Below, piece by piece: positions 4,800 to 64,000 of a stretch of DNA of 64,000 nt (position 1 is the first letter of the stretch; each line of letters begins with the position of its first letter). Below the pieces are notes generated by a model, which did no database searches, was not told the origin of the DNA, and saw nothing but the letters and a program-made list of their open reading frames with translations. Source of the stretch: Lunularia cruciata (lineage: Eukaryota > Streptophyta > Marchantiopsida > Lunulariales > Lunulariaceae); the NCBI GenBank assembly GCA_948567375.1, contig OX419757.1:57223665-57287664 (forward strand), in the 5' to 3' direction. The position numbers were made by a program, and so were the translations under genes.

Positions 4800-4800
4800 T

Positions 4801-4812: not shown

Positions 4813-5040
4813 AAGAATGGGGTGGATGGAATTTGTAGACAATCAAAACATTGATATTTTTGTGTCTATATACTATTGAAGCATCATTTCATGCTTTAGG
4901 TAGAATTTTCTAAATGCAATCATCTTGTCTGATGAACCCTTCGTACTTTTGATTGTAACTTATGGACAATGATGGACGTGTTGTATCTACATGTTAACTT
5001 AGATAAATTATAGGTAGTTTGATAGAGTAGAAGCCATGGC

Positions 5041-6300: not shown

Positions 6301-6525
6301 TTGGACAAGATAAAAATTAAAGTACAACACCAATGTAGAAATTAATTATTAGGTTGTTTGGCACCTTTGAGTAATACACCTAAGAATAATTAGTTCCAAG
6401 ATGGGAAGTTTATCAATAAAGTAGCCATAGAGCAAGCTTTGGAGGAAGATAAACCTATTTTTGTAGCGTAGATCAAGTCAGTTGCACATGGAGAGTCTGA
6501 TGAGCACTAGAAGCCTCATCAAGCA

Positions 6526-19937: not shown

Positions 19938-20554
19938 TGTGAGCCGGCCTGTCTCTCACTCAGGATGAACCTCTGATGGCTATTATGGTAGCGCACCATG
20001 GACTAAGAAGGCAAGGAAACCGAACTCCATCATACTCTTCCAAGGCTAACACTCCAAGACTCAAGACATCGCTCACTAGAGAACTCAATGAGAGAGAGAT
20101 AGTTGCAAATGAAAGGATGATGAGTACCTCCTCACCCCTTGTTTATATACTTGTGAAATAGTTACGTACCAAAGTTACTAATTACCGTAGTAACTCAAGT
20201 TACTAGACTAAAAGTCAAGTAAAGTCAAAAAGTAAAAAGGAATATCCATTCACATGGGCATATTCCCCTAAGCATGTGGTCTTATCTTGACCCAACCACT
20301 AAGTCAAGGATTCCTTCACATGGGCTATCCTTGGACTAAAGAAGAATTCAAAACAACTAAAATCCAAAATAGTGGTGCTCATCTTTTCTACTTCCTCTAA
20401 AGTAAGGTCCCCTCTATCTTAGCTATGACTAACTTTAGCTAACCATGACTAATATAGAACCATCCTTTATCTCTATATAAATAATATCTCTTAAGTACTT
20501 GTAATACCAAGCTAAATATCACAATACCACACACATGCACAAATAGGTGTTACA
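19938..20554 (-). repeat. Solo C LTR inside the B2 5' LTR
   Basis: 617 bp, on the plus strand TGTGAGCCGGCC ... GTGTTACA, like the LTRs of element C at 54021 and 61157. It lacks about 75 bp present in those (around AAGGCTTGCGGGCCC). No internal sequence is attached, so it is the product of LTR-LTR recombination. I see no clean TSD. Confidence 0.9.
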
Positions 20555-20622
20555 CACCCTAATCCTATGGTGACGCTTCCTTGGAGGAGATCCTCTTTGT
20601 CTATATAATAAAGAGAAGGTGC
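20555..20622 (+). repeat. B2 5' LTR, segment 2
   Basis: Continues the B LTR after the C solo LTR: AATCCTATGGTG...TATATAATAAAG...AAGGTGC. It contains the LTR TATA box and stops at the D1 insertion point. Confidence 0.85.
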
Positions 20623-20720
20623 GTATATAGATCACTACAAAACATACATTGCTATCAACATCATACACTATAGAAGCACAACTCACACATAAGTCATACA
20701 TAGACTCTAAAGTGCCACAA
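20621..20720. repeat. 100-bp direct repeat X (outer copy)
   Basis: GCGTATATA ... AAGTGCCACAA, nearly identical to 21169-21268. The two copies flank the D1 3' LTR segment. The outer copy abuts the B2 LTR through shared GTGC. Confidence 0.85.
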
Positions 20721-21160
20721 TAATCAGATGGTTTACCACTCTCAACTCAACTCAACTCAGATCAATACTTGATTTGTCACTCTATAAATTGCCAACAACT
20801 GGGCACTAATTACAGTCAAGCCACACCCACTCAAGCATAGAGAATTCAGGTGATGCTTGCCGGCCTCTGTCCACCATAGCCAAGAACTCGAAGGCTCAAC
20901 ATTAGAGAAGTGAGCTCTCTGGAGCTCACTTTGAAACTTATACCCCTGGACTCGAGCTAGCTCTGAAACCCTAATGGTCCCACTGACGGCACACTCAATG
21001 GTGCAAAGTGATGGTGGGCCCCACCGTGAAGTCAGTACCCCAAACACAAAATCTGACCATCGGAAAGTAGTCTCTGAGAAACTACTGAAATAACTCTAAC
21101 TACTATCATTGGAACTCTAGTGTCCGAGCATCTAGATGGGGCACTACAAATGGCGTGACA
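20719..21160 (-). repeat. D1 3' LTR, truncated
   Basis: 442 bp matching 30124-30574, beginning (plus strand) AATCAGATGGTTTACC and ending GGCGTGACA. The remaining ~900 bp present in the 5' LTR (29212-30123) are missing here. Confidence 0.85.
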
Positions 21161-21168
21161 ACTATCGT

Positions 21169-21268
21169 GCGTATATACATTGCTACACAACATACATCAC
21201 TATCAACATCATACACTATAGAAGCACAACTCACACATAAGTCATACATAGATTCTAAAGTGCCACAA
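21169..21268. repeat. 100-bp direct repeat X (inner copy)
   Basis: Lies between the LTR segment and the purine tract; see the outer copy at 20621-20720. It is not found next to the 5' LTR. Confidence 0.85.
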
Positions 21269-21270
21269 TC

Positions 21271-21280
21271 GCCCCCCTAG
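21271..21280 (-). other. Polypurine-tract candidate of D1
   Basis: CTAGGGGGGC on the minus strand lies downstream of the integrase. It is separated from the recognisable LTR start by repeat X, which is unusual. Confidence 0.5.
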
Positions 21281-21438
21281 CTGGCGGTTAGGTCCCTCTA
21301 ACTCCAGATAGCCATCTACTCTAAGTATATGGTATACCCTCTAATGGGCAAAGATCAGGAAGCCGGGTGCTACGGAGCCCCATCGTTAGTCATCTGTCTG
21401 CAATCTATACCATTAAAGAATGAACTAGCTATAGGTCA

Positions 21439-21579
21439 AGTATATCTAGGACATAACCACTATCCATGAGGAACCACCATGAAAAGAGGAGTCATACATG
21501 CCATATGCCATCCTCTTGAACAACTATCACACACTAGCATAGTAGTAGCTCCACCAGAAGAGCCACATAACATACACCT
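21439..21579 (-). pseudogene. PHD finger at the end of D1 integrase
   Basis: The minus-strand reading gives RCMLCGSSGG, then VCDSCSRGWHMACMTP, then PHG, a TAG stop (21460-21462) and WLCPRY. The spacing C-x2-C-x11-C-x2-C-x4-H-x2-C followed by GxWxCPxx is the signature of a PHD zinc finger (C4HC3). The CDxCxxGWHxxCxxP block is especially typical. The final ligand Cys is Tyr (TAT) and the stop sits just before the Trp; both look like single-base decay. PHD fingers bind histone H3 tails, often H3K4me3 or unmodified K4. Placed at the integrase C-terminus it occupies the position of the chromodomain in chromoviruses. Confidence 0.85.
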
Positions 21580-22500
21580 CAAGCTTACACGTACAAGTGC
21601 CAAGCTTGGGTCCATAATACCATCAATGTTTGGGAAGTGGCATGGCGCACAATTGTGCACATGATCCTTCCAAACAACACCATCACGTCCTTCTAACACA
21701 AGGACTCCAGATGGCAAAACCTCATGCACTCTCAAGATAGTGCAGCCTGTAGAAACATCAAGTGTTGTTTGTATTGTTTGCTGTAGATATACATAATTTT
21801 TTGGATGAAATTGACGGATCGAGGGTCTATAACCTCCTCCTCGAATGGTAGCATAGCGTAAAGTATCTCTATGCTGAGCAATCACCAAGTTCTCAAAGGC
21901 CATCGGCATCACTCTCCAAAAGATCTTTGCCCGCTGAGAACATGCGCTCATCCATACATCGGGGTCATCCAAGTCCAAAACTATAGTAGCATCTTGACAA
22001 ATAGCTGTAGGTAAATCTAGATCTTGTCTATAGAGTAGAAAGTATGGAGAGAAAGATGCTAAGGAGGCTTGCCGGCCGAACCAATAGCCCATGGCCAACC
22101 AAGGTAATTGGAGATCCCAATCTTCCAAGTGGCCTCTCTGCAAACCATACTTTTGCAATCCTCTCTTCACCGTCTGAACCACTCTCTCTGCTAAGCCATT
22201 TGCCTCAAGGTGATCTCGGGATGTAGTACAATGATCAATCAAAGCCTTGTCACACAAGACATGAAACTCCTCCAAGAACTCTGTACCCTGATCAGTCAAA
22301 ACCTCAGTTGGTGCACCAAAATGACTAAGAACTTGATCCAAGAACGAGTAAGCTGTCCCTTCACTAGACTTATCAGGAAGTGCCACCAACTCAATCCACT
22401 TGGATAAGTGCTCTACCATGACCAAAACATACCGATGATGTCTCACAATCATCGATAAAGGTCTGGTGAAGTCCAAACTCCAACGGTTACCTAATCACAT
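21580..22500 (-). pseudogene. D1 integrase catalytic core and C-terminal region
   Basis: A 338-residue open frame (22476 down to 21460, including the PHD finger) starts at an in-frame TTG inside SLDFTRPL, so the true protein extends upstream. The DDE triad is complete: SLDFTRP, VLTDQGTEF and ANGLAERVVQ. The core is followed by a region with HPKNYVYL and VLPSGVLVLEG, resembling the small beta-barrel that precedes C-terminal readers. It would insert element cDNA in the nucleus. This is the best preserved part of D1. Confidence 0.9.
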
Positions 22501-23060
22501 GATAGGTAATGAGTGTAATTGTGGCGTAGGAGCATTGAATGATGCTCTAACTCAGTCACAAACCACACATCTGGCAACAAACTACTGTACCTCGGTCTGC
22601 ATACCGTGCCACCAATAATGACTTTGGAGTAAGCTATACATATGCTTTACTCCAGAATGTCCTAGCTCCTCATGAGCATGATGGACCAACTATGGTCTCT
22701 ATGCTGGAAGTGGTATTACTCGCACTCTACCATCCTCTCATACACGCAAAAGGTGTCTACCCTCCAATCTGAACCGTCTGGCTTGTTGAAGAACACGGTC
22801 TCTCTCCTTGGCTCCAACTGTGCCACCCACAACACCAGTGCAAAGATAGTCCATCACTAAGACATCATCATGAATGTCTCGCTGAACTGTACCAATATCT
22901 TCACTCTTTGGATCTGTGACCTCAATAACTCCTCCTATATGCGTTAAGAGAAATACCACCAAAGCCTCTACAAATATACACAAAAAGGCCGATGCATGCC
23001 AACTTGGCACCATCTCCTCATCTGTCTCACCATGCCAACGTGCTCCGGTCTGATCCTGTT
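22501..23060 (-). pseudogene. D1 integrase zinc-binding region and RNase H-integrase linker
   Basis: The HHCC motif is visible near 22570-22700 as LVHHAHEELGHSG followed by CVVC, with stops between. Upstream lies an acidic linker (VTDPKSEDIG). The matching region of D2 is at 63720-64000. Confidence 0.75.
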
Positions 23061-23600
23061 GGCTGGGACATGGGTTTCTACTCAACCCATCTGCATCACG
23101 GTTCACCACTCTAGGTCTGTGAACAATGGTGAAATCATACTCTTGTAAAATCAGAGCCCATCGTGCAAGCTTCCTTGAAAGCTTATCAGACTCCATCAAC
23201 CACTTCAGCGGCTGATGATTAGTGATGAGAGTGAAGGAGTTACCAAATAGGTAACATCAAAAATGTGCTACTACCCAAACTACTGCCAAGCACTCTCCCT
23301 CATAGGAACTATACTTCACCTCCACTAAATTGTTGGAGCGACTAGCATAGGCCACCACAAACTCCTTCACCTAATCATCATGCTGGGTGAGCACCGCTCC
23401 AAGCCCCAACATACTCCAATCAATGTGAACTTGAAATGGTCATCCCCTGATCAGTCTCCTCAAAATAGGAGTAGATGTCAACCTCTCCTTGAGCTCTACA
23501 AAAGCTCTCTCCTGCTCATCTCCCCAACACCACTCCTATGTAAGCTTGGTCAGCTTTGTCAAGGCCTTGGTAATGGCACTAAATCCTCTAACATAGCGGC
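23061..23600 (-). pseudogene. D1 RNase H
   Basis: Readings include FQVHIDWSMLGLGAVLTQ, where the first acidic residue is kept, and EFVVAYASRS. Then come YEGECLAVVW, LARWALILQEYDF and NRDADGLSR, the last Asp motif. A TGA replaces a codon that reads AGA in D2 (HF*CYL versus HFRCYL). Confidence 0.8.
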
Positions 23601-24460
23601 AATAGAAGTTTGCCAACCCAAGGAATGCTCGCACTCTGCTCACATCCGTAGGCCAAGGAATACGTGCAATAGCCTCCACCTTGGTCTACTAAACACCAAG
23701 TCCTCCGGGATAGATAGTGTGACCCAAATACTCAACTTGCTCGTGGAAGAACCTACACTTCCCAGGATGTAATTTGAGTCCATGAGATCTCAACCTCTCA
23801 AACACCTCCAACAATTGTCTCTCATGCTCCTCCACAGTAGTGCTATAAACCAAAATGTCATCAATATAGCACCAAGCAAAATCCAATCCAGCTGGGATCC
23901 TATCCATGACCCTCTAGAACTCAGCAAGAGCGTTCTTTAACCTAAATGGTAAGAACCTCCACTAATATAACACATTCTTGCTGTGAGGATCAATAGCCCA
24001 AAATGCTGTCTTGGACTTATCCTCCTCCCTCATTGGCAATTGATGATATCCCGCTCGAAGATCCAAAGTACTAAAGATCTTTGCATGCCCAATTGCATCA
24101 AAAAATCTCCTCCAGTGTAGGCATGGCATACCAATCAGCCCTGGTCTGTTGGTTGATAGGACGGTAATCTCCACACATCCACCTATCTTTATAGTTGCCA
24201 TGCATATCCTTCTTGGCTGGCATCACTATCGCTAATGCATACTCTCCATGTGAAATCTCCACCAAACCAACCTCAAAAAGGTCACTACTCCGGCTTTGAA
24301 TCAATGTCCTCTCCATATCACTATATCGATAAGGACGTCGGAAAACTGGTGTGTCGCTAGTCAGCTCAATCTGTATACCAGGTCCCTTTAGAGCACCCAA
24401 ATCCTTCATATTGAAGGCAAAACAACTCGTGTGACTCCTCAAGAACCTCAAAACCCTCCG
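23601..24460 (-). pseudogene. D1 reverse transcriptase
   Basis: Landmarks in order: IQIELTSDTPVFRRPYRYS, VEISHGEYALAIVMPAKKD, WMCGDYRPINQQT and STLDLRAGYHQLPM. Next are WCYIDDILVYST, with the active site YIDD at 23857-23868, and HPGKCRFFHEQVEYLGH. Frameshifts separate the pieces near 24100 and 23950. Two adjacent TAG codons at 23686-23691 stand where D2 has CAGCAG. Confidence 0.88.
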
Positions 24461-24880
24461 TCTTTCCTCTCTAGTAAGCTTGGGTCCAAGATCTGGATCC
24501 TAAGTATCCTCTTTAACTGTAGTAGGAGTGGAATACGTACTGATTGACTGCTACACTGGGCCCTTGGGAGCAATAGTGTCATGCTCCCGACCACTAGAGG
24601 TCCCAAACTTTGTGTGAAAAACTCCCTCCACTCTGGCTGCAAACTCCACACGTCCTCTAGCTGCATCCCATGTGGACCAAGGGTGTAATCCAAGTAGCCC
24701 ACGCTCACCTGGATGGACTCCAAGTAGACCACTCTCCCTAGTAGCTACTGGATGTGTCCCAAGAATACCATGTCCACTTGGTCCATCGCCCCCAGCATGT
24801 GCTTGAACCATCTTGATAGGCACAGGGCTCACAAGTGCCCGAGTGGTGATGCCTATCAAGTGCATCCTACGCTGCTCTGC
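24461..24880 (-). pseudogene. Linker between D1 methyltransferase and RT
   Basis: Open in one minus-strand frame (24937 to 24551). After the methyltransferase there is a QRRMHLIGITTRA segment, then a low-complexity part with repeated GLLGVHP / GLLGLHP words and FHTKFGTSS. D2 has the same sequence at 61920-62225. No separate domain recognised. Confidence 0.6.
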
Positions 24881-25865
24881 CAAGCCAAGGCTCACTATCC
24901 AGGTCAAACAGTTCAGGTCCATAGCCTGACCTAACACCTGATGCTTGGATGCCTCTCACACTGCTAGAACAATGGTAATACCGGTGCAAAAACCCATCGC
25001 CCGCTCTCTCTTATCAACGTTGGGCTCCACCAATTGCTGTAACTGTGAGTCCCAAACAAGTCTAGGTCCTCCCTCTCAAAAAGCATGAGAGCTTGGGAAA
25101 CTCATGAGTGTGGGAAATGCGGCTCTAGGCTGTCCAACTAGGTTCACCACTGCCATAGGTGACCTATCAGCCACTACCACTATCCGAGATTGACGCCCAA
25201 CATCCAAGATATCATCAACAAGGATGTGGTCAAGTTGTTGAATCCCATCATAAGCGCGCTATAGAACCTCTCTGGGTAAGAAGTTCATCTACCAAAGATG
25301 AAGATGATGAGCCCGTGATCCCACTCTGGCTGCATCTAACAATATAGTAGGTCCCATCCAAGAATGGACATGATGTGTACTTTCTACCACTCTGGTGCGA
25401 GAATCACCCATCAAAGGAACGTTCTCCAAAAGGTAAGCTGGAGAAACAAATTGATGAACCTAGAGATGTTGTAGTATCCGTAACATCTCCCAAAACACAC
25501 CAGAACGAGGATCCTAAAGACCCAATCCTGTACCAGCACGTGTATGGCCTTGACATGGCCATCTTGAAATCACCAAGTGAATAGGCCCATGTCTCTCTAG
25601 GTCATGCGCCCCCAGTAAGGAAATGTCTCCTAGTAGGGCCTTCTAGTAACCTCTGATTGTTGACATCGGTAATAACTCCGGATACTGATAGGCCACATGT
25701 GCCACATGATGTAGAGAGACTTGCCTAGCAGTCTCATCTCTCTCTACATACAAGTACCTCTGTACTCGTATACCCGCATGTAACACCATAGCTAGTCCGG
25801 TGCTGATCCCACCAAACAACTCCAACAGGCATATCTCCTCTATTGGATACTACCAAGCAATGAGT
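24881..25865 (-). pseudogene. D1 cytosine-5 DNA methyltransferase-like domain
   Basis: On the minus strand: ELFGGISTGLA (25790-25825) is motif I, the AdoMet loop, followed by YLYVERDETARQ, the acidic residue that holds AdoMet. SRWPCQGHT (PCQ at 25549-25557) is motif IV with the catalytic Cys. LLENVP (ENV at 25418-25426) is motif VI. A GSRAHHLHLW block resembles motif VIII, and ERAMGF with VLGQAMDLN (24911-24934) corresponds to motifs IX-X. The enzyme family methylates cytosine in DNA using AdoMet. The motif order is canonical (I, IV, VI, X), not rearranged as in plant DRM2; the end resembles DNMT3-type enzymes. It lies between protease and RT in the same orientation. At least five in-frame TAG stops break it. 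Confidence 0.85.
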
Positions 25866-27115
25866 GTGGTATCCAGGGGGGTCAAAGCAATTGCCTCTGG
25901 AGGCTCATCCTCACACTCATCTCTTGATGGTACAAAGGCTCCACTCCAAGCCTACTGCACCAATTGATCTGCATGCTGCTGCAATGCCTCCTCTGAACTC
26001 CACAATGGGACATCCAAGGTGGATGCAACAATCCCACTCGTACTCCAAAGCCAAGTGATATCTTCTGGTACTGGAGTATCCCCTACATGGGTGTTCTCCT
26101 CCAACAAGTCACCAGGCCAAGTAATTGCACCACTAAAAGCTAAAACTGATGTTGCCATGGTCCTAGACTATAGTGAGCCAAGACTGCCACTACTGAAGCG
26201 TACTGGTAGGTGACATACCCGTCCTTCACCAGACTACCAACCAGGTCTATAAGAGGCTGTCTCCTCCCAATAGTCAATGCTGAAACCCATGCGGTATAAC
26301 ATTGCTCCTCCAACTAGCACATCATATGACTCAATTATTGTTGCAATAGCCTGAGCTCTCACCACCGAGCTATTAGTTGGATGACCAGGCTGAACTTGGA
26401 CAACAAGCTCCCCACCTGTGATGTACTGTGTTGAACCACCACCTAGAGATGTTTGGATCTAAAATGGACACCTTTCCACATTAATCTTCCATAACTCCAG
26501 ACCGACAACTGTAGCCTTCCCCAACATAAAGGGCTATGCACCATAGTCTAACAAGACTCTCTGTGGTGTATAGACCTTCCTTGAAGGTCCCACCAAACAG
26601 AAAATCCCCCTTTGGTTATCCAATAGGACAACATTAGGTGTAAACCGGGCTCTCTCAAAGACCGGTCTAGCTAGCAACTTTGGTTATCCAATAGGACAAC
26701 ACTAGGTGTAAACCGTGCTCTCTCAAAGGCCGGTCTAGCTGGCAACTCCTCCAGTCTAGCCGTTGCTGCCTGCCATAAACCACTGATCGTTGAACAGATC
26801 CCATGCTCCTCAACCAAGTCAGCTCCACTACCAACCACCTCTGCTCTAGTAGTAGGAACTGCACCATCCCTACTCTCATACAACGTGGCAGCCAACCGGA
26901 ATACTGGAGCTGGGTCAACTCCCAATGTAAACATATCACTGGCTAAAAACAAAGGACGCCGTATAATCAGCTGAGCCGCCCCCAACATCATGCTAGACTT
27001 AGTCTGTGTAGTAGTAGTTGGCTGACTAGCAGGTAGTCCATCATGTACTCCATCACCACCTACCACACCTGCACTAGGATGTCTAGGAACCATGGATGTC
27101 GTCTGCAATGCCTTA
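25866..27115 (-). pseudogene. D1 protease region
   Basis: The frame has RVLLDYGA followed by a stop and PFMLGK near 26520-26560, where D2 reads LLGSGVQPFML; the family form would be LLDSGAQP. Downstream are ESYDVLVGGAMLY and YWEETASYRPGW, then a less conserved spacer up to the methyltransferase. Upstream (27108-26671) is a Ser/Thr-rich region ending VVLLDNQ. A 68-bp tandem duplication at 26611-26746 shifts the frame. Confidence 0.75.
26611..26746. repeat. 68-bp tandem duplication in D1
   Basis: Two units start TTTGGTTATCCAATAGGACA at 26611 and 26679. They differ at a few bases. D2 has only one unit, so it arose in D1, and 68 is not a multiple of three. Confidence 0.9.
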
Positions 27116-28800
27116 AATAGTATGAAAGATTAGGGAAGTCTGACCTGTCTCCCAACCTCTCCTCTTTGTGGGTCCAACTCCATTGATGCTCCTTTAGGCT
27201 CTGGAGCACATACAACACTCCTAGTCACTGCTGTAGATGCATCCACCTATGCTGCTCCGCACATGAAGTCCAAAGCATCTCTATCACCAACATGTGAGGT
27301 GGAAGCCTTAGCACCCGAATCTGATCTCCTTTGAGCAATAGCCATACTAGCCAATCTCTGCTCCAATTGCTCAATCCGAGTAGCCATAGCTGTGTCAGAA
27401 GTAAGGGCAAGTACTACACACCTACTAGGTGTAGATCCTCTACCACCTTGTCCTCCATGAATTGGAGCTCCTCTACTACCTGCCATAGCAGCCCTACCAC
27501 TCCGTAACTCCGGGTGTAGGTCAAAACACCGATCATTAGTGTGACCAAATCTTTGGCAGTGCTCACATTGCCTCTGTGCTGGCTGTGATGCACCTGAGGT
27601 ATCAAGTCTAATGCCTTGAGTACACTCTCTTTGATGGTGAGGTCCACCACAAGTCCAACAAGCAACACCACCACTCATTGGCTGCTGCTGACCCAAAAAT
27701 GAGGGTAAGGGTCTAACTCCACTAGGCCCTCCACTTGCTCCATAGGGTTTGGGCTGTCCACCATGTCCTCAAAAACCAACTGGGCGTGGTGCACTTTGCT
27801 GCACTCTAGAAGAAGTCACAGCCGTGGATGAGGTCTCCCTACCAAATCCAGATGTCACCACTCTCTCCTCTACCATGTTGAGCTCAATACGCTCAGCCAA
27901 ACCAAAGACCATTGTCAAAGTAGGCAAAGTAGCCTGTAACAACATAACATCACAAACTCTATGTCGTAACTCCCTGTCCAGTATCCCATACCAAAACTAG
28001 ACTGCTTGGGCCTCAGTAACTCCCTGAGTGAAACTAATCAGCCGCCTCATGCAAGTGTATGCCTCACGTAGGCTCTCTCCAGCCTTCCGTTGGAACTCCT
28101 GCAAGCTCCTCAACTTATCATTCTGCACTCCCTGGTAGTTCTGCCTCAAACATAGGAAGAACTCTACCATGGGGTTAAACCCCGGTACCACACCACCTCT
28201 TGTAGCGGTAACTCCACTTGTAGTAGCATGATCTCCAGCTAGTGCACCTCCACTAGCTCCACCAACACTACTTGAGCTAGAACTCGTAGGTACAGCCAAT
28301 CTACTCCTGGCCACCGAACCTGAAGTGATAGAGACATAGTTTGGAGACCAATATTGTCTCTATAACTCAATCTCCTCCAAATGAGCTCTCTTGAACTCAT
28401 GGTAGTCATCCATTGGTGGACCCTCCAAGTGCTGAAACAACCCCTTCCATGCCATGAAGAGTGTGAACAAAGTCAGGTTCTGCATCTATTGCAGATCACA
28501 CCAACTATTGAACTCATGGATGAAGTCATCCAACTCAATAGTACCCACTATACTAGAGTAACGTCTAGGGCCTTTGGAGGCCCCATAAATCTCATCCATG
28601 TCCTACAACAATGGTGTGGACACACCAAGTGCACTTTCAACTGAATCACTCCTATGTCGAACTCCAACTCAAAGTCAATCTCCTCCCTCATTGGGACCTG
28701 AGATACAGGCTGATACCGAGCACCACTCCGAGTAAACCCACTACGTACTGCAGGGCTAACTCCTCTGGAATCTCCAAAGAACTCCATCATGACAAAGTAA
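27116..28800 (-). pseudogene. D1 gag with two zinc knuckles
   Basis: It begins near 28785 (EFFGDSRGVSP) and continues through FNPMVEFFLCLRQNYQG and LREAYTCMRRLISF, a retrotransposon gag domain, in frame 28314-27997. Two CCHC boxes follow in frame 27696-27247. CWTCGGPHHQREC is slightly irregular in spacing, and CEHCQRFGHTNDRC is canonical. Between them is a Gln-rich linker. The protein would package element RNA. Frameshifts lie near 28000-27700 and 28550. Confidence 0.85.
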
Positions 28801-29186
28801 CCACAACAACAAACCCGAACCACCAACTGCAACCGCAAGTTGCAACCGCAAGTGCCCCACTAAGGGCCAACACCAACTAAACACCACCCACTAATGTAAC
28901 TCTAATCGAGATAACTACACTAGGGGAAAGGGCAACATGTAACCTGCCATCATAACACACACTCTCACGGTCTACAGGTCATCACTTCCTGCCTCACCGG
29001 AGAGAAACAAAGGTAGTTTGACTGGTCATCACTCCAACCTCACTACCGAGAGCACACCAGAGCACCAACGCTCAAAAGTCAGGGCGCCTCACACAAACAT
29101 GGTGCACAAATAGGAAGTAGAGAATGGAGGGAGTCCAATTACAAAAAATTTAAATGAAAACCCTCCATCTCATAACACAACACGGG
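28801..29186 (-). other. D1 leader between primer site and gag
   Basis: No open frame of note. It matches the D2 leader (49857-50245), including the GTTGCAACCGCAAG-type words. It probably holds packaging signals, by position only. Confidence 0.5.
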
Positions 29187-29202
29187 ACTGACTGTGCCAC
29201 CA
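29187..29202 (-). other. Primer binding site candidate of D1
   Basis: TGGTGGCACAGTCAGT on the minus strand; D2 has TGGTGGCAGAGTCAGT. It follows the LTR end (TGTCA) within about ten bases. The tRNA is uncertain; similarity to TGGTATCAGAGC is only partial. Confidence 0.6.
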
Positions 29203-29211
29203 TTTGGCATT

Positions 29212-30574
29212 TGACATAAGAGAAGTTCGTATCTAAGTCCTAAGCTACCAGGATCACCAAGAATGGGATCAAACTACCTCTCTTAGCCAAAGCTACATGT
29301 GTATAGATAACGGTGGCATAGTCACTATGACAACAAGTGAGGGTGGACTAGTTGGCTAGGGCACTAGTTCAGAAACAAGAGATCTAGGGGTCAAACCCTG
29401 TTGCGCATAATCTAGCAAGAAAAGCAGATTTTGCCAACCAATGACCAAGATCTACTCTAAACTAGCTAGCCTCATGCCAACAAGCTGGCTTGCTGGCCCT
29501 TCTAGGCTTTGTAGCCTCTCATAGCCCTATACCTCAAAATGCCAAAATTCAGCCAAATGAGGCCTTTCTTTTTGTCACTTCGAACCTCTTCCAAAATTGG
29601 CAAAACTTCTCCAAATCTGCAAAGTCCTCCAAACTAGCAAAACTCCTCTAAATTTGGCCAAACAGCGAAACTCCTCCAAATCTGGCCAAAATTTGACGTA
29701 AATCCCAACCAAAATCTGACATAAACCCTAAAGTTGGTTGTCTACCAAATCCCCCGCTAACTTTCCATTCAAGCCAAATTGACAACACTGGTTTTTCCAA
29801 ATCACAAATTCATGAGAATAGCTTCCAAACTCCACCTTCAATTTGACTTTTTGAGCTCAACTCATAGCAAATTGGTCATGCATTCACCTCTTGAGCTCAA
29901 AATCACAACCATTGCTCAAAATTTGCTCCTTCTTTGCTCAAAATTTGGCCAACGCTTCCGCACACCATCTGCCTAATTGCCAAATCTGCATCAATCAAAT
30001 GAGCTTCTGCACACTAGGGAAACACTGAACTTGAATCGAGCTACCAACCATCCACCAAGCTTGGAGATACCACCAACACTCAAAGTTCTTGCACCCGATT
30101 TCCCTTTGACTTCACTTCTTTGATGTAATCAGATGGCTTACCACTCTCAACTCAACTCAACTCAGATCAATACTTGATCTGTCACTCTATAAACTGCCAA
30201 CAATTGGGCATTGATTACAGTCAAGCCACACCCACTCAAGCATAGAGAATCTAGATGACGCTTGCTGGCCTCTGTCCACCATAGCCAAGAACTCAAAGGC
30301 TCAACATCAGAGAAGTGAGCTCTCTGGAGCTCACTTTGAAACTATACCTCCTGGACTTGAGCTAGCTCTAAAACCCTAATGGTCCCGCTGACGGCACACT
30401 CAATGGTGCAAATGGTGCAAAGTGACGGTGGGCCCCACCGTGAAGTCAATACCCCGAACACAAAATCTAACCGTCGGAAAGTAGTCTCTGAGAAACTGCT
30501 GAAATAACTCTAACTACTATCATTGGAACTCCAGTGTCCGAGCATCTAGATGTAGCACTACAAATGGCATGACA
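29212..30574 (-). repeat. 5' LTR of D1
   Basis: 1363 bp. On the minus strand it starts TGTCATGCCATTTGTAG and ends CTTATGTCA. The D2 LTR is 919 bp; the extra length includes an inserted segment with tRNA-like boxes (about 29290-29690). The part 30124-30574 is repeated at 20719-21160. Confidence 0.82.
29290..29570 (+). repeat. Possible tRNA-derived SINE inside the D1 LTR
   Basis: TAGTTGGCTAGGG (29349-29361) resembles a pol III A box and GGGGTCAAACCC (29387-29398) a B box, about 35 bases apart. This segment is absent from the D2 LTR, which fits an insertion. I found no clear 3' tail or TSD. Confidence 0.3.
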
Positions 30575-30649
30575 ATGCTCCTTTGGAGCATCAAATGTTT
30601 GAGTGTGCAATCTGTGTTTTCTCTTGTCTCTTGTCCTCGGAGTATTACA
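30575..30649 (+). repeat. B2 5' LTR, segment 3
   Basis: Resumes with ATGCTCCTTTGG after D1 and ends CGGAGTATTACA, the same end as the 3' LTR. Confidence 0.9.
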
Positions 30650-32880: not shown

Positions 32881-33800
32881 AAGTCCAGAGTGCACAACTT
32901 GATGGACAAATTCTTGAGAATTTGAAGGATGTCGTGGATGAGTTTCAAGATATCTTTCCCGATGATCTACCTTCAGGATTACCACCAAAAAGGCGAGTAG
33001 ATCACAAAATTGAGGCACTCTCGGGGAAGACACCTCCTTGTAAGGCCCCATATTGCCTATCACCTCATGAGTTGGAGGAGTGTAAGACTCAAATTGAGGA
33101 GATGCTGCAGAAAGGGTTCATCCAACCTAGCGTATCACCATATGGAGCCCTATCTTGTTTGTGAAGAAGAAGGATGGTACAATGCGCATGTGCATAGACT
33201 ATCAGGGTCTCAATCAACAAACAATGAAGAACAAATACCCCTTACCTTGCATGGATGACCTATTTGATCAATTCTATGGAGCGAGATACTTCACCAAACT
33301 GGACTTGCGGAGCGGTTACAATCAAATCCAAATTGTAGAGGAAGATGTGTACAAAACTACCTTTTGAACTAGGTATGGCCACTTTGAGTATCTTGTGATG
33401 CCTTTTGGCCTCACCAATGCACTTGCCACTTTCATGAGTCTAATGAATGACATATCTTGTCCATACTTGGATAGCTCTGTTATCGTCTTCTTGGATGATA
33501 TCTTAGTATATAGTAGCACAATGTCAGAACACAAACAACATCTATAAGAGGTCCTCCAGATTCTAAGACAGAATCAATTGTACGCCAAAATCTCAAAGTG
33601 TGAGTTTGGCAAGTCTGAAGTAGACTACTTGGGGCATAGAGTAAGTGCAGAGGGCATTCAAGTATTGATAGATAAAATAGAGGTCATTCAAAAATGGAGT
33701 GCCCCAGAAGATCAGACTCAACTTAAGAGCTTCTTGGGGTTGACGGGATTCTATCGTAGATTTGTCAAGGACTTCTCCAAGATTGCATAGCCTTTAACAA
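32859..33800 (+). pseudogene. B2 reverse transcriptase
   Basis: Readings: FPDDLPSGLPPKR, APYCLSPHELEE, SPYGAL, then a frameshift near 33155. Then [43 protein letters not shown], and a TGA stop at 33366-33368. [10 protein letters not shown] (active site 33488-33499) and [18 protein letters not shown] follow. The catalytic aspartates are intact. Confidence 0.9.
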
Positions 33801-34330
33801 CACTACTTGGCAAGGGGAAGAAGTGGACATGGGGAACTACATAAGAGTTTTTCAAGAATTGAAGGCCGCCTTGCTACATGCACCAATCTTGAAGTGGTAT
33901 GACCCAAAACGTCCAATCAAGTTGGCTATAGATGCATCAAGCGTAGCAATAGGAGTAGTCCTACAACAAGAGTGGCATGACGGATGGCATCCAATTGCAT
34001 ATTTCTCTCAAAAGTTGTTACCGGCAAAGTGCAACTACCACACCACAAAACAAGAAGAGGTGGCCATCGTTCTAGCAACCAAGCATTAGAAGCACTCTTT
34101 GGGCGAGAAGGCATTTGTAGGAGAGACAGACCACAAACCTCTAGTCTACCTTGAGACGCAGAAGGATCTATCTCATTGCTAAATTTGGTGGGTAGAGTGG
34201 CAACAACGATTCAACATGACAATCACCTATGTGGAAGGTAAGAAGCAACTTGCAGATGCATTCACCCGCATGCCAATGGCAAACAACTTGGTGGCAGAGG
34301 TTAAGATAAACCCTGAATTCTGGCCAGAGA
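33801..34330 (+). pseudogene. B2 RNase H
   Basis: Landmarks are KLAIDASSVAIGVVLQQEW, HPIAYFSQKL, KQEEVAIVLATKH then a stop, GETDHKPLVYL and KKQLADAFTRM. All four acidic positions can be located. Confidence 0.85.
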
Positions 34331-48918: not shown

Positions 48919-49837
48919 TGATACACCATTTGTAGCTTTGCATCTATATTGCTTGGATACTAGAGTAGTAGCAATAGTAGTTAGAGGTATTTTGGTAGTT
49001 ACTTGTGGATTATTTTCTATTGGTCAGATTTTGTGTTTTAGGTACTAACTACATGGTGGGGCCTACCGTCACTTGCATCATTTTCACTGTTGGGTGTGCC
49101 ATCAGCAAGACCGTTGGTGTGAGACCTAGGTTGAAATCAGGAGTATACCTTGGGAGTGCAGCTCCAGAGAGCTCACTTCTCCATTGTTGGGCCTTTGAGT
49201 TCCTGGCTAGAGTGGATAGAAAGAAAAAGAGCATCACATGGAGTCTCTTAGCTAGAGTGGGTGTGGCTTGACTATAATCAGGGCCCAATTTTTGGTAGAT
49301 CATTGAGTGACAGATCAAGTATTGATCTAATTTGAGTTGATTCAAGTTGATGAAGAACTGATCACAACAGAGAAGTGAGAGTAAGGGAGAAATTGGGTGC
49401 AAGAACTATGAGTGTTGGTGGTATTTTCAAGCTTGGTGGATCATGGTGTCTTGATCAAGTAGTTTAGATTTGCTTAAGAGAGATTGTGTGTGGAAGTGTT
49501 GGTCAAATTTGGAGTCAAAGAGAAGCAATTTTCAAGTGGTAGTTGTGATTTTGAGCTCAAGAGATGAAAGTAGGACCAATTTGTTGCGAGTTGAGCTCAA
49601 AAAATGAAATTGAAGGTGGAGTTGGGAGCACACCCTTGAGAATCAAAGATTGGAAGAAATAGATTTTTCCAATTTGGCTTGAGTGAAGAGTTAGCAAAGG
49701 ATTTAGTGTCAGCCAAATTTAGGGATTTATGTCAGATTTTGAGAAGTGTTTATGTCAAATTTTGGCAAGAAGAACTTTGATCCCATTCTTTGGTGATCTT
49801 TGTAACTCAAGAGGTAAATAGGTACTCTGATTATGTC
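48919..49837 (+). repeat. 5' LTR of D2
   Basis: 919 bp; starts TGATACACCATTTGTAG (D1: TGTCATGCCATTTGTAG) and ends GATTATGTCA. It lacks the roughly 400-bp insert with tRNA-like boxes seen in D1. Confidence 0.82.
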
Positions 49838-52390: not shown

Positions 52391-53114
52391 GTTTATACAC
52401 CACAGAGGGTCTTACTTGGCTCTGGTGTGCAACCTTTTATGTTGCAGAAGGTTGCAATTGTTGGTTTAAGGTTATGAAAGACCGATGTGGAGAGATAACC
52501 ATTTCAAATCCAAACATCTCTAGGAGGTGGTTCAACATAGTACATCACATGTGGAGAGCTTGTTGTCCAAGTTCAGCTTGGTCATCCGACTGATAGCTCG
52601 GTGGTGAGAGCTCAAGCTATTGTGACCATAGTTGAGTCATATGATGTGCTAGTCAATAGAGCAGTGCTATACCCCACGGGTTTCAATATTGACTATTGGG
52701 AGGAAATAGTCTCCTATAGACCAGGTTGGCAATCAGATGAGGGACAAGTATATTGCCTACCAGTACACTTCAATAGTGGTAGTCTTGACTCACTAAAGTC
52801 TAAGACCATGGAAACATCAATTTCAGCTTTTAGTGGTGTTGTTACTTGGCCTAATGACTTATTGGAGGAGAATGCTCCTATAGAGGATACTCTAGTGCCG
52901 GAGGAGATCACTTGGATTTGGAGTACAAGTGGAATTTTTCTATCTACCTTGGATGTTCCATTGTAGAGTTTGGAGGAAGCATTGCAATAACATGCACATT
53001 GGTTGGTGCAATAGGCTTGAAGTGGAGCCTTTGTACCACCATGAGATAAGTATGAGGATGAGCCTCCAAAGTTGATTACCTTGACACCTTTGGATACCAC
53101 ACTCATTGCTTGGC
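52391..53114 (+). pseudogene. D2 protease region
   Basis: RVLLGSGVQPFMLQK near 52405-52450 has Gly where the catalytic Asp should be, so this copy is inactive. ESYDVLVNRAVLYPTGFNID and YWEEIVSYRPGWQSDEGQ follow in frame 52601-52966, as in D1. The tail leads into the methyltransferase. Confidence 0.75.
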
Positions 53115-54020
53115 AGTATCTAGTAGAGGGAGTATGTCTATTGGAGTTGTTTGGTGGGATTAGCACCGGACTAGCTACAATACTACATGCAATTATACGA
53201 GTACAAAGGTACTTGTATGTAGAGAGAGATGAGACTACTAGGCAAGTCTCTCTACATCATATGGCATACTTGGCCTATCAGTATCCTAAGTTATTATCAA
53301 TGTCAACAATCAAGGGTTACTAGAAGGCCCTACCAATAGACATTTCCTTACTGGGGGTGCATGATTTGGAGAGACATGAGCTTGTTCATTTCGTGATTTT
53401 TGGATAGCCATGTTAGGGATATACACATGGTAAGCAAGGTTTGGGTCTTTAAGATCCCTATTCTGGTGTGTTTTGGGAGATGTTACAATTACTACAACAT
53501 CTCTAGGTTCATCAGACCATTTCTCCAGCTTAAAATTTGGAAACATCTCTTCGATGGGTAGTAGTGAGTACACATCAAGTCCATTCTTGGATGGGACCTA
53601 CTGTTTTGTTAGATGCAGCCAAAGCGGGATCACAGGATCATCGTCTTCATCTTTAATGGACAAACCTCTTACCTAGAGAGGTTCTACAACATGCTTATGA
53701 TAGGATTCAACAACTAGACCACATCATTGTTGATGACATCTTGGATGTTGGGCGTTAGTCTCAGATGGTGATAGTGGTTGATAGGTTACTTATGGCAGTG
53801 GTGAACCTAGTTGGATAGCATCAAGTGGCTTTTCCTACACTTATGAGTTTCCCACGCTCTCATGCTTTTTGAGAAGGTGCTCCTGGAATGGTTTGGGACT
53901 CACAGTTAGAATAGTTGGTGGAGCCCAACATTGATGAGAGAGAGCAAGCGATGGGTTTTTGCACCGGTATTGTCACTTTTCTAATAGTATCAAAGGCATC
54001 TAGACGTCAAGTGTTAGGTC
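53115..54020 (+). pseudogene. D2 cytosine methyltransferase-like domain, N-terminal part
   Basis: LLELFGGISTGLATI (about 53138-53180) is motif I, followed by YLYVERDETTRQV. PC with the catalytic Cys is at 53408-53413, directly followed by a TAG where D1 has Gln. The motif VI region reads ETS instead of ENV. EREQAMGF and SKASRRQVLG lead to the insertion of C at the first half of motif X. Stops at 53321, 53450 and 53504 sit at the same three places as stops in D1. The rest of the domain is at 61849. Confidence 0.82.
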
Positions 54021-61156: not shown

Positions 61157-61848
61157 TGTGAGCCGGCCTGTCTCTCACTCAGGATGAACCTCTGATGGCT
61201 ATTATGGTAGCGCACCATGGACTAAGAAGGCAAGGAACCCCAACTCCATCATACTCTTCCAAGGCTAACACTCCAAGACTCAAGACATTGCTCACTAGAG
61301 AACTCAATGAGAGAGAGATAGTTGCAAATGAAAGGATGATGAGTACCTCCTCACTCCTTGTTTATATACTTGTGAAATAGTTACGTACCAAAGTTACTAA
61401 TTACCGTAGTAACTCAAGTTACTAGACTAAAAGTCAAGTAAAGTCAAAAAGTAGAAAGGAATATCCATTCACATGGGCATATTCCCCTAAGCATGTGGTC
61501 TTATCTTGACCCAACCACTAAAGCAAGGATTCCTTCACATGGGCTATCCTTGGACTAAAGAAGAATCCAAAACAAAAAGGCTTGCGGGCCCAAGAGTTCT
61601 CAACTCTTTCCCCAAAGCCAAACACCTAGGAATAATACCAAGTCAACACACTAAAATCCAAAATAGTGGTGCTCATCTTTTCTACTTCCTCTAAAGTAAG
61701 GTCCCATCTATCTTAGCTATGACTAACTTTAGCTAACCATGACTAATATAGAACCATCCTTTATCTCTATATAAATAATATCTCTTAAGTACTTGTAATA
61801 CCAAGCTAAATATCACAATACCACACACATGCAGAAATGGGTGTTACA
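61157..61848 (-). repeat. 5' LTR of C
   Basis: 692 bp, appears identical to 54021-54712. Confidence 0.97.
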
Positions 61849-62230
61849 GGTCAAGCTATGGACTTGAACTATTTGACGTGGATTGTGAGCCTTGGCTTGA
61901 CAGAGTAGTGTAGGATGTGCTTCATAGGCATCACCACTTGAACACTTGTAAACCCTATGCCTATCAAGACAATTCAGGCACATGCTAGGGACGATTGACC
62001 AAGTGGACAAGGTATTCTTGGGATGTAGCCAGTGGGTACTAGGGAAAGTGTTCTACTTAGAGTCCATCTAAGCGAGCATGGTCTACTTGGATTACACCTT
62101 TGGTCTACTTGGGATGTAGCTAGAGGACATATGGAGTTTGCAGCCAAATTAGAAGGAGTTTTTCACTCAAAGGTTGGGACCTCTAGAAGTCGGGTGCATG
62201 ACACTGTTGCTCCCAAGGGCCCAATGTAGC
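61849..62230 (+). pseudogene. D2 methyltransferase C-terminal end and linker
   Basis: Resumes with GQAMDLNYLTWIVSLGLTE, the motif X continuation that matches D1 24934-24880. Then FIGITT and the linker with GLLGLH and FHSKVGTS, as in D1 24551-24750. Several stops. Confidence 0.82.
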
Positions 62231-63130
62231 AGCCATTTAGTACATCTTCCACTCTTATGACAATTACAGAGGATACTTGGGAGCCAGATCTTGGATCCAA
62301 GCTTATAGGAGAGGAAGGACAGTGGGTTTGGAGGTTCTTGAGGAACTACACAAGTTGTTTGGCCTTCAATATGAAGGATTTGGGTGCTTTTAAGGGACAT
62401 GGTATATGGATTGAGTTGACTAGCAATACACCAAGTTTTTGATGTCCTTATCAATATAGTGATATGGAAACGACATTGATTTAGAGCCAGAATAGTGACT
62501 TTTTTGAGGCTGGTTGGTGGAGATTTCACATGGAGAGTATGCATCAATGATAGTGATACCAGCCAAGAAGGATATGCATGGCAACACATAGGTAAATGTG
62601 TGGAGATTACCGTCCTATCAACCAACAGACTAGGGCTGATTGGTATGCCATGCCTACACCGGAGGAGATCTTTGATGCAATTGTGCATGCAAAGGTCTTC
62701 AATACTTTGGGTCTTTGAGCAGGATATCATCAATTGCCAATCAAGGAGGAGGATAAGTCCAAGATAACATTCTAGGATATTGATCCTCATGGAAAGGATG
62801 TGTTATATCAGTGGAAGTTCTTACCATTTGGGTTAAAGAATGTTCTTGCTGAGTTCCAGAGGGTTATGGATAGGATCCTAGCTATATTAATGATATTTTG
62901 GTCTAAAATACTACTATGGAGGGAGCATGAGAGACAATTGTTGGAAGTGTTTGAGAGGTTGAGATCTCATGGACTCAAATTACATCATGGGAAGTATAGG
63001 TTCTTCCATGAGCATGTTGAATATTTGGATCACATAATCTACCTTGGAGGACTTGGTGTTCAGCAGACCAAGGTGGAGGCTATTGCACATATTCCTTGAC
63101 CTATGAATGTGAGCAAAGTGTGAGCATTCC
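62231..63130 (+). pseudogene. D2 reverse transcriptase
   Basis: NYTSCLAFNMKDLGAFKG, IELTSNTPSF, VEISHGEYAS and PAKKDMHGN in one region. Next come QWKFLPFGLKNVLAEFQRVM (62809-62870) and HERQLLEVFERLRSHGLKL. The active-site region near 62885-62905 has lost bases; the YIDD motif no longer reads. GVQQTKVEAIA keeps both CAG codons (63061-63066) that are TAG in D1. Confidence 0.85.
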
Positions 63131-63660
63131 TTGGGTTGGCAAACTTCTATTGCCACTATGTTAGAGGATTTAATGCCATTGCAAAGGCCTTGACAAAGTT
63201 GACCAAGCTTACACATGAGTTGTGTTGAGGAGGTGAGCAAGAGAGAGCTTTTGTAGAGCTCAAGAAGCTCAAGAAGCTCAAGAAGAGATTGACATCTGCT
63301 CCTATTTTGAGAAGACCGATCAAAGGACAACCATTTCAGGTTCACACTGATTGGAGTATGTTGGGGCTTGGATTAGTGCTCACCCAATATAAGGGGAAGG
63401 AGTTTGTGGTGGTCTATGCTAGTCGCTCCAAAAATTCAGCGGAAGCAAAGTATAATTCAAATGAGGGGGAGTGCTTGGTAGTAGTTTGTATAGTAACACA
63501 TTTCAGATGTTATCTATTTGGTAACCCCTTTACTCTCATCATTGATCATTAACCATTCAAGTGGTTGACGGAGTCTAACAAGCTTTCAAGGAAGCTTGCA
63601 CAATGTGCTCTGATTTTATAAGAGTATGATTTCATGGTTATCACAGACATGGAGTGGTGA
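63131..63660 (+). pseudogene. D2 RNase H
   Basis: The open frame 63289-63552 has PFQVHTDWSMLGLGLVLTQ, EFVVVYASRSK, EGECLVVV, HFRCYLFGN and LIIDH, the RNase H acidic motifs in order, followed by SRKLAQCALI. A short in-frame AAGCTCAAG repeat (63260-63285) duplicates KLKKL residues. Confidence 0.85.
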
Positions 63661-64000
63661 ACCTTTATGCAGATAGGTTGAGTAGAAACCCATGTCCTAG
63701 CAAGCAAGATTTGACCAGAGCAAGTTGGCATGGTGAGACAAATGAGGAGATGGTGTTAGGTTGGCATGCATATGCCTTTCTTTGTATATTTTTTGAGACT
63801 TTGGTGGTATCTCTCATAGCGCATACATGATAAGTTATTGAGGTCACATATCCAGAGAGTGAAGATATTGGTATAGTTCAGCAAGACATTCATGATGATG
63901 TCTTAGTGATGGACTATTGTTGCATTGGTGTTGTGGGTGGCACAATTGGGGCCAAGGAGAGAGACCATGTTCTTCAGCAAGCCTTATGGTTCAGATTGGA
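63661..64000 (+). pseudogene. D2 RNase H end and integrase linker (incomplete)
   Basis: Matches D1 22738-23110: LYADRLSRNPCPS, then a linker with SEDIG and DVLVMDYCCIGVVGGTIGAK. It runs to the window edge before the HHCC zinc region. Confidence 0.8.

What the first reader, a model, noticed from the sequence alone, without database searches (positions are those of the whole stretch)
24881..25865. Ty3/gypsy family D carries a cytosine-5 DNA methyltransferase-like domain between protease and RT
D1 shows motif I (ELFGGISTG), motif IV with the catalytic Cys (SRWPCQG), motif VI (LLENVP), a motif VIII-like block and motif X (LGQAMDLN). They are in canonical order and share orientation with protease and RT. 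D2 has the same domain at the same place, so it is a family trait and not a chance capture. Order argues against capture of plant DRM2, whose motifs are permuted; the end is DNMT3-like. From memory, retroelement methyltransferases were reported in a charophyte alga and dinoflagellates; a vascular-plant version would be worth documenting.
Basis: partly seen in the sequence, partly recalled or inferred. Interest (0 to 1): 0.92.

Follow-up and report, generated by a model that had tools for sequence, protein, structure and literature searches.

The report
Liverwort retrotransposon with DNA methyltransferase
A jumping gene present in very many copies in what appears to be a liverwort genome carries its own DNMT3-like DNA-methylating enzyme, placed just before a probably leaky stop codon, so it may write the very mark that hosts use to silence jumping genes.

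Summary
The minus strand of 24881-25865 encodes a C5 cytosine methyltransferase, motifs I-X in canonical order, between protease and RT of a Ty3/gypsy-type element. It passes Pfam's cut-off. A relative (65% identical) folds at pLDDT 82; all 50 Foldseek rows shown are DNMT3 entries. D1 and D2 are decayed copies of a family with 1,774 junction matches genome-wide; some copies have open frames of about 1,430 aa.

Corrections and additions. (1) The host is most likely a liverwort (its DNMT3 paralogs branch beside Marchantia and Riccia), not a vascular plant. Named relatives occur in other liverworts, Sphagnum and Closterium. (2) MTase and RT are separated by an in-frame UAG CAR YYA, the tobacco mosaic virus leaky-stop context, in 34 of 36 loci and in a relative with 52% MTase identity; so the MTase is on the Gag side. 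(3) The integrase ends in a PHD finger. (4) The ends are DIRS-like, A-coding-B-A-B, with 4-bp target duplications. (5) The 21 element MTases in my tree form one clade apart from plant DNMT3.

The Klebsormidium element KnitGypsy-Dnmt3 (2018) is the known precedent: a new variant of a known kind. Likely role, inferred: methylating the element's own cDNA or new insertions.

The parts
30126..30575 (-). D1 5' terminal repeat A1 (about 450 bp)
   Evidence: 91.8% identical to A2; same repeat beginning TGTCACG in young copies
27523..28599 (-). D1 Gag region from MDEIYG to the second CCHC knuckle
   Evidence: motif positions; matches the Gag part of less decayed copies; copy L009 against Marchantia P0140
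26290..26680 (-). D1 protease region (active-site stretch VLLDYGA at 26537-26557)
   Evidence: outer limits approximate; identified by motif; a retropepsin profile matches only weakly (below cut-off), in the relative L035
24840..25918 (-). D1 DNMT3-like C5 cytosine methyltransferase domain (8 stops in this copy); catalytic Cys codon within 25547-25561
24551..24553 (-). conserved in-frame UAG followed by CAG TCA (CAR YYA), between MTase and RT
23695..24220 (-). D1 reverse transcriptase core
   Evidence: tblastn; Pfam RVT_1 on other copies
23125..23529 (-). D1 RNase H
   Evidence: Pfam on other copies
22180..22719 (-). D1 DDE integrase core (rve)
   Evidence: Pfam on other copies
21439..21606 (-). 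D1 C-terminal PHD finger of the integrase
   Evidence: PF00628 in copies L013, L014 and in L035
21167..21269 (-). D1 repeat B1
   Evidence: 93.2% identical to B2
20721..21161 (-). D1 repeat A2
20619..20721 (-). D1 repeat B2 (3' end of the element; the last bases seen in young copies are missing)
48926..49340 (+). D2 5' terminal repeat A (76% to D1 A)
53042..54020 (+). D2 MTase domain, first part
   Evidence: (no Pfam match)
61843..62226 (+). D2 MTase motif X and tail after the nested insertion
62227..62229 (+). D2 in-frame UAG followed by CAG CCA
62230..63998 (+). D2 RT-RNase H and following stretch, running to the window end

Best explanation
The D family is a Ty3/gypsy-type retrotransposon of a liverwort. 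It encodes Gag-protease-DNMT3-like methyltransferase in one ORF, then a conserved UAG in TMV-type readthrough context, then RT-RNase H-DDE integrase-PHD finger in the same frame, between DIRS-like repeats (A ... B-A-B). Shown by sequence: the architecture, the C5-MTase homology (and the fold of a relative), conservation of the catalytic motifs, the UAG CAR YYA, the repeat layout with 4-bp target duplications, and recent amplification (A repeats up to 99.3% identical). Inferred: ribosomes read through the UAG part of the time, so the MTase is made at Gag level and packaged. In the particle or the nucleus it methylates the element's new double-stranded cDNA or fresh insertion. The PHD finger steers integration to chromatin by reading the H3 tail. 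The likely benefit is early marking of new copies, which limits damage to the host or hides the cDNA from defences against unmethylated DNA. My odds: identity of the domain about 0.97, leaky stop about 0.85, self-methylation rather than another target about 0.5.
For: Domain: profile against DNMT3A E 1.3e-20; against plant DNMT3, probability 99.1; fold of P0001. Family trait: 123 PF00145 and 111 P0001 matches scored, both lower bounds; 6 of 6 junctions taken without regard to MTase have it upstream. Constraint: the MTase is the best conserved part of the Gag-side protein, 74% to Marchantia P0140 against Gag 63 and PR 60, and 52% to L035 against PR 45 and Gag 26; pN/pS 0.35 for MTase (20 stop-free copies), 0.31 for RT (17). 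Leaky stop: TAG in 36 of 36 loci, CAR YYA in 34 of 36; 1,704 of 1,774 junction matches genome-wide have TAG; L035 has TAG CAA TCA. CAR YYA after UAG is described as essential for TMV readthrough (PMC2754532, passages). Repeats. Retrotransposon DNMTs that methylate CG de novo are reported for Symbiodinium (PMC5890265, abstract and Discussion).
Against: No activity, expression or methylome data were available. CpG observed/expected is 0.46-0.48 in five 9-kb loci holding a copy each, 0.33 in D1, 0.18 in the whole window and 0.82 in the L035 contig, so CpG loss gives no special support for self-methylation. All own-genome copies descend from few masters, so the 1,774 junctions are not independent; the independent support for the UAG is chiefly L035. 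P0144 and P0148 have MTase and RT in one ORF without a stop, so readthrough is not universal in the wider group. The integrase segment shows weaker constraint (pN/pS 0.58, 9 copies, low divergence). One of the 14 aligned relatives (P0015) lacks the catalytic Cys. In the phylogeny the branch to the element MTases is long and the program warned of joined long branches.
Confidence: 0.72

Rival explanations
1. The MTase acts on host DNA, not mainly on the element: it dilutes or redirects the host's methylation, as an offensive function.
For: It is predicted to be made at Gag level; host and element DNA share the nucleus; de Mendoza et al. discuss effects of retrotransposon DNMTs on the host methylome (PMC5890265, Discussion).
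Against: Pfam shows no targeting module above cut-off on the Gag-side protein; in Klebsormidium the host methylome was described as not highly divergent from that of land plants.
Confidence: 0.15
2. The MTase methylates RNA (the packaged genomic RNA), as DNMT2-type enzymes do with tRNA.
For: It would sit with the genomic RNA if it is part of the Gag-side protein; de Mendoza et al. raise RNA methylation for the Symbiodinium LINE.
Against: Profile and fold matches rank DNMT3 (DNA enzymes) first; DNMT2 chains rank far lower (E about 1e-4 against 1e-20).
Confidence: 0.12
3. The domain is an inert passenger or only a structural part.
For: D1 and D2 are broken; 12 of 33 copies aligned over the domain (D1 among them) have stops in it, although they were picked as best matches.
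Against: Motifs I, IV, VI and X stay in relatives with down to 46% identity to P0001, the catalytic Cys in 13 of 14, and in 25 of 33 own copies all four motif strings; the MTase is more conserved than Gag or protease.
Confidence: 0.08
4. The domain is a recent capture of the host's own DNMT3.
For: Best solved-structure relatives are DNMT3; the host has at least two DNMT3 genes.
Against: 21 of 21 element MTases form one clade (100/99) apart from 9 of 9 plant DNMT3 rows; identity of P0001 to MpDNMT3a/b is only 24-28%; no DUF3444, which plant DNMT3s carry, appears in the Pfam results for the element proteins.
Confidence: 0.05
5. The UAG is a true terminator and RT-integrase is made another way (reinitiation, splicing, or editing of UAG).
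For: No protein evidence for readthrough exists here; two relatives examined have no stop at all there.
Against: The frame is continuous across the stop in intact copies and in L035, and the 3' context is CAR YYA; a chance match of that context is about 1 in 512 by my own arithmetic with equal base use.
Confidence: 0.12

Closest known systems
KnitGypsy-Dnmt3 of Klebsormidium nitens (de Mendoza et al. 2018, PMC5890265; parts 1-2, the Discussion and passages read)
   Same: DNMT3-type MTase in the Pol polyprotein of a gypsy-type element; DIRS-like repeat structure; unrearranged MTase domain; clusters in a divergent clade away from the host's multi-exonic Dnmt3
   Different: Host is a charophyte alga, with fewer copies than Symbiodinium. 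In the main text 'PHD' and 'protease' do not occur and 'stop codon' occurs once, for premature stops; figures and supplements were not seen, so these parts may exist there too.
SymbioDIRS-Dnmt3 of Symbiodinium (same paper)
   Same: DNMT3-type MTase in a retrotransposon Pol ORF, A-coding-B-A-B repeats, CG methylation de novo reported
   Different: Uses a tyrosine recombinase; the liverwort element has a DDE integrase and 4-bp target duplications
Plant DNMT3 (PpDNMT3a/b, MpDNMT3a/b)
   Same: C5-MTase of DNMT3 type with canonical motif order
   Different: Host genes with a C-terminal DUF3444 (PMC6453930, passages; PF11926, which I take to be DUF3444); separate clade
Gypsy elements with readthrough candidates, such as RIRE2 of rice (named in PMC2754532)
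   Same: A readthrough candidate in a plant gypsy element
   Different: No MTase is mentioned in the passages seen; the RIRE2 paper itself was not read
Chromoviruses (gypsy integrases with a chromodomain; search listing)
   Same: Chromatin-reading module at the integrase C-terminus
   Different: Here it is a PHD finger, nearest by sequence to CHD4, KMT2D/C, PHF12, KDM5B, DPF and PHF21A PHDs

Membership tests
DNMT3-type C5 methyltransferase | Motifs I, IV (PCQ), VI (ENV), VIII, IX, X in unpermuted order | tested here: met
   AlphaFold model of relative P0001 matches DNMT3 entries over 320-363 alignment columns
DNMT3-type C5 methyltransferase | Closest among solved enzymes to DNMT3, ahead of DRM, HaeIII/HhaI and DNMT2 | tested here: met
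   DNMT3A E 1.3e-20; 4onj 'DNA methyltransferase' (a DRM, as I recall) 5.8e-11 and DRM2 3.1e-8; HaeIII 1.5e-6; DNMT2 1.3e-4
DNMT3-type C5 methyltransferase | Falls inside the plant DNMT3 clade | tested here: not met
   element clade 100/99 apart from 9 plant DNMT3 rows; so DNMT3-like, not a plant DNMT3 ortholog. No animal DNMT3 row was put into the tree on purpose
DNMT3-type C5 methyltransferase | De novo DNA methylation activity | not testable with these tools
   needs biochemistry
KnitGypsy-Dnmt3 elements | DNMT3-like MTase in the polyprotein region of a gypsy-type element | tested here: met
KnitGypsy-Dnmt3 elements | DIRS-like A-coding-B-A-B repeats with gypsy domains | tested here: met
   B doubled in 7 of 7 3' ends examined and in D1; A doubled in 8 of 10 copies tried
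KnitGypsy-Dnmt3 elements | Common ancestry of MTase and RT with the K. nitens element | not tested
   no sequence named as K. nitens was among the rows listed
Ty3/gypsy | Order PR-RT-RNase H-rve integrase | tested here: met
   for RT-RH-INT; protease by motif only
Ty3/gypsy | Simple pair of LTRs at the two ends | tested here: not met
DIRS elements | Tyrosine recombinase and (recalled) no target duplication | tested here: not met
   rve DDE integrase; 4-bp duplications in 6 of 7 copies
TMV-type leaky stop | UAG CAR YYA in frame between two ORFs | tested here: met
   34 of 36 loci, L035
TMV-type leaky stop | Measured readthrough | not testable with these tools
   needs a reporter assay

The most novel reading that the evidence does not exclude
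There is one old, widespread lineage of retroelements (streptophyte algae, bryophytes and unidentified hosts seen in metagenomes) that joins a DNMT3-like writer, a leaky stop that sets its dose to Gag level, a histone-reading PHD integrase, and split A/B-A-B ends whose internal B-A joint holds both termini (a 16-bp joint identical in two lineages with 52% MTase identity). It methylates its own cDNA before integration as a self-restraint or stealth strategy, and has been doing so since before or near the origin of land plants.
Probability: 0.35. Interest if true: 0.88.

Novelty: new variant of a known kind. Interest (0 to 1): 0.73.

Why it matters
DNA methylation is a main weapon of plants against transposons, yet here a very successful transposon keeps a conserved DNA methyltransferase. 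Some liverworts are established laboratory plants, so whether a retrotransposon methylates its own cDNA becomes a testable question in a land plant. The readthrough stop and the PHD integrase give further testable parts.

Tried and rejected
Plant DRM origin: rejected, because the motif order is canonical and the host's own DRM-like gene (L002) is permuted. Capture of host DNMT3: rejected. Bacterial origin from Streptomyces-like enzymes with the same AGWPCQG string: the four bacterial or phage rows lie apart on a long branch; not excluded for the deep root. CpG depletion as evidence of self-methylation: inconclusive. Target duplication of D1: none recognised, its 3' end is incomplete. Viral contigs gave 6 loci with only 31-53% identical partial matches; those I translated are Streptomyces- or phage-type enzymes. 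Genome contigs gave 5 loci, of which only L035 matches most of the domain. Comparative genomics of Chlamydomonas (PMC8226300) was searched for PHD and methyltransferase in gypsy elements: neither word occurs.

Literature for a land-plant version: searches. Among the listed papers only the 2018 paper (PMC5890265) was recognisable as being about DNMT-bearing retrotransposons. I looked at passages of PMC5784723, PMC6453930, PMC9985172, PMC9289625, PMC11244446, PMC9516144, PMC10538959, PMC8616336 and PMC10952607 and saw no report of one in them; other listed papers were not opened. Most subscription papers and bioRxiv preprints are outside that library, so this does not show that nothing is in print.

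Rows left out: of the tree, P0013 and L034 (motif search failed) and P0186, P0213, P0225 (dropped by me as close to other rows); of the pN/pS count, copies with stops, and L006 because it is the same place as L028.

Full report
WHAT IS IN THE WINDOW. The window is part of a 566-Mb assembly (G000:C6:57223665-57287664). On its minus strand lies D1, an element of about 10 kb (20619-30575). Between protease and RT it encodes a cytosine-5 methyltransferase domain (about 24840-25918), with motifs I, IV, VI, VIII-like, IX-like and X in this order and one frame. Pfam PF00145 scores 24.8 bits against a cut-off of 22 and the best solved relative is DNMT3A (E 2.9e-6). D1 is dead: 8 stops in the domain; its A repeats are 91.8% identical. 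D2, on the plus strand, has the same layout; its pieces are 64-79% (Gag-MTase) and 72-77% (RT side) identical to less decayed copies. Its MTase is interrupted by a young nested gypsy element and reaches no Pfam family.

FOLD AND FAMILY OF THE ENZYME. A profile of 14 relatives (A1) matches DNMT3A in the PDB at E 1.3e-20, ahead of 4onj ('DNA methyltransferase', a DRM as I recall, 5.8e-11), DRM2 (about 3e-8), HaeIII/HhaI (about 1e-6) and DNMT2 (about 1e-4). Profile-profile comparison with plant DNMT3 covers motifs I to X (276 columns, probability 99.1, E 9.3e-19); with short environmental DNMT3-like enzymes E 1.4e-24. AlphaFold2 on the environmental relative P0001 (65% identical to D1; 35 sequences aligned) gives pLDDT 82.1 and pTM 0.85, with residues 1-25 and 140-147 (from the catalytic Cys on) below 50. 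The 50 Foldseek rows shown, of 180 with E <= 0.001, are all DNMT3A, 3B or 3C entries, best E 7.2e-18, target-normalised TM up to 0.84. This is a model of a relative, not of the window's broken copy.

FAMILY TRAIT, COPY NUMBER AND CONSTRAINT. In the own genome 123 PF00145 matches (of 2,161 first-look candidates) and 111 P0001 matches covering nearly the whole query (of 13,362 candidates) were scored; both are lower bounds. The PF00145 list includes host genes (L001-L004). Open frames reach 1,448 aa. A 24-nt pattern at the MTase/RT junction, with any codon at the stop, occurs 1,774 times, the reversed control 0. Of six such junctions on contig C1, chosen from the listed plus-strand places without regard to MTase, 6 of 6 encode MTase upstream, 5 of 6 in more than one piece. 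Of 33 copies aligned over the whole domain (32 loci from elsewhere in the genome plus D1; L006 and L028 are one place), chosen by best match and thus biased to intact ones, 25 have all four motif strings searched and 32 have WPCQG. Pooled pN/pS among stop-free copies is 0.35 for MTase (20 copies), 0.31 for RT (17) and 0.58 for integrase (9, low divergence). Between copy L009 and Marchantia P0140 the MTase is 74% identical, Gag 63%, protease 60%; against L035 52%, 26% and 45%. The MTase is thus the best kept part of the Gag-side protein.

THE STOP BETWEEN MTASE AND RT. In every own-genome copy examined (36 loci, 35 places, D1 and D2 included) a TAG stands at the aligned position, usually about 105 codons after the end of the P0001 match, and RT follows in the same frame where the reading frame is open (L027 is frameshifted there). 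The next six bases are CAR YYA in 34 of 36 (30 CAGCCA, 2 CAGTCA, 2 CAGCTA; exceptions CAGCTT and CAGCCT). Genome-wide 1,704 of 1,774 junction matches have TAG; TAA and TTG are among the others listed. Since the copies share recent ancestors, this is not independent evidence. The independent case is L035, a 9.3-kb contig filed under a cyanobacterial MAG. Its ORF 3-3488 is Gag-protease-MTase, then TAG CAA TCA, then ORF 3492-6632, RT-RNase H-integrase-PHD. CAR YYA is described as essential for readthrough of the TMV UAG, with 32% readthrough measured in plants for the wild-type TMV sequence (PMC2754532, passages read). I infer a leaky stop, so that the MTase belongs to the abundant Gag-side product. 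P0144 and P0148 have MTase and RT in one ORF, so the stop is not universal.

PHD FINGER AND ENDS. PF00628 lies at the integrase C-terminus in L013, L014 and L035, in the Marchantia protein P0076 (precomputed), and by alignment in D1 at 21439-21606. Its nearest solved relatives by sequence are PHDs of CHD4, KMT2D, KMT2C, PHF12, KDM5B, DPF and PHF21A; that many of these read the H3 tail with unmethylated K4 is recalled. Young copies begin with repeat A (about 449 bp, TGTCACG...) and end B-A-B, with B about 107-110 bp ending ...CGACA (two of the seven alignments run longer: 118 bp in L067, and on into A in L057). A-A identity is 96.5-99.3% in 8 of 10 copies tried; in two the fetched flanks gave no match. 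B is doubled in 7 of 7 3' ends and in D1; 4-bp target duplications are seen in 6 of 7 copies. This is the DIRS-like layout stated for KnitGypsy-Dnmt3 (figure legend); the 4-bp duplications and the DDE integrase set it apart from DIRS elements proper. The internal B-A joint CACGACAGCTGTCACG is exact in 7 of 9 joints printed, altered in D1, found 560 times in the genome, and present in the distant L035. A and B repeats could not be checked in L035, whose contig ends overlap. I infer that the joint serves as the template for both termini.

ORIGIN. In a tree of 46 MTase domains, 21 of 21 element enzymes form one side of a branch (100/99), 9 of 9 plant DNMT3 rows another (99/98), 12 environmental DNMT3-like rows another and 4 bacterial or phage rows another (the program warned of long branches). 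The element clade includes enzymes placed elsewhere in their proteins: RNase H-MTase-integrase-PHD in P0151 and P0153, MTase-integrase-PHD in P0152 (P0153 reaches no PF00145 match but E 2.4e-38). Either one acquisition was followed by movement of the domain, or related acquisitions happened more than once. RT-integrase identity to the liverwort element is 64% for L035, 55% for P0144 and 38-46% for P0148 and P0151-P0153, against 31% for another gypsy element in the window.

HOST. The genome has two DNMT3 genes with canonical order (L001, L004). L001 groups with Marchantia and Riccia (100/99), outside their pair (95/91), with Calypogeia further out; L004, of which only part was read, sits with MpDNMT3a and Riccia (89/94, open fork). 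The host is therefore most likely a complex-thalloid liverwort outside Marchantia plus Riccia. Lunularia cruciata, reported at 580 Mb with Ty3/Gypsy bursts (PMC9985172, passages), fits but was not tested. Sources name relatives of the element MTase in Calypogeia fissa, Marchantia polymorpha, M. paleacea, Riccia sorocarpa, Sphagnum and Closterium.

NOVELTY. DNMT3-bearing gypsy elements with DIRS-like repeats are known from Klebsormidium, and DNMT-bearing LINE and DIRS elements from Symbiodinium (PMC5890265). I found no paper on a land-plant version in seven searches of an open-access library and the passages opened. Schmid et al. 2018 list five Marchantia methyltransferases without DNMT3, although MpDNMT3a and b are now named in databases. 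New here, as far as I can tell: high-copy bryophyte families, placement before a probable leaky UAG, the PHD integrase, the 4-bp duplications, and the conserved B-A joint; whether the Klebsormidium element shares some of these I could not see.

Noticed in passing
54021-61848: A different, very young gypsy element is nested in the MTase of D2: its 692-bp LTRs are 100% identical (692 of 692) and its ORFs lie on the minus strand.
   Followed up: partly
19938-20554: A solo-LTR-like copy of that same nested element, 97-98% identical, stands just beyond the 3' end of D1.
   Followed up: no
26610-26747: A 70-bp tandem duplication in the D1 protease region (94% identical) coincides with the change of reading frame between Gag and MTase.
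   Followed up: no
6796-7152, 10710-11554, 33185-34758, 36415-36948: Remnants of further gypsy RT or integrase elements, 26-41% identical to the D family.
   Followed up: no
45330-45670: Direct repeats spaced 86 bases apart, three overlapping copies of a 169-nt stretch, 80-86% alike.
   Followed up: no
L035 (CADCWO010000201.1): A complete-looking relative of the element sits in a contig filed as a cyanobacterial MAG, and its two ends overlap as if circular; probably a eukaryotic contaminant. P0023 is likewise named as a bacterial MAG protein.
   Followed up: partly
P0151, P0152, P0153: Unnamed metagenome elements carry the related MTase between RNase H and integrase, or just before the integrase, and also end in a PHD finger.
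   Followed up: partly
L057 (G000:C11:34594493-34595793): One copy is followed directly by another A repeat after B (B-A-B-A), as if tandem copies or a replication intermediate.
   Followed up: no
L029-L032, L034, L036-L039: Streptomyces and phage C5 methyltransferases share the string IAGWPCQGIS...GLDDPRSGLW (or close to it) with the element enzymes, yet the four rows used lie far apart from them in the tree.
   Followed up: partly
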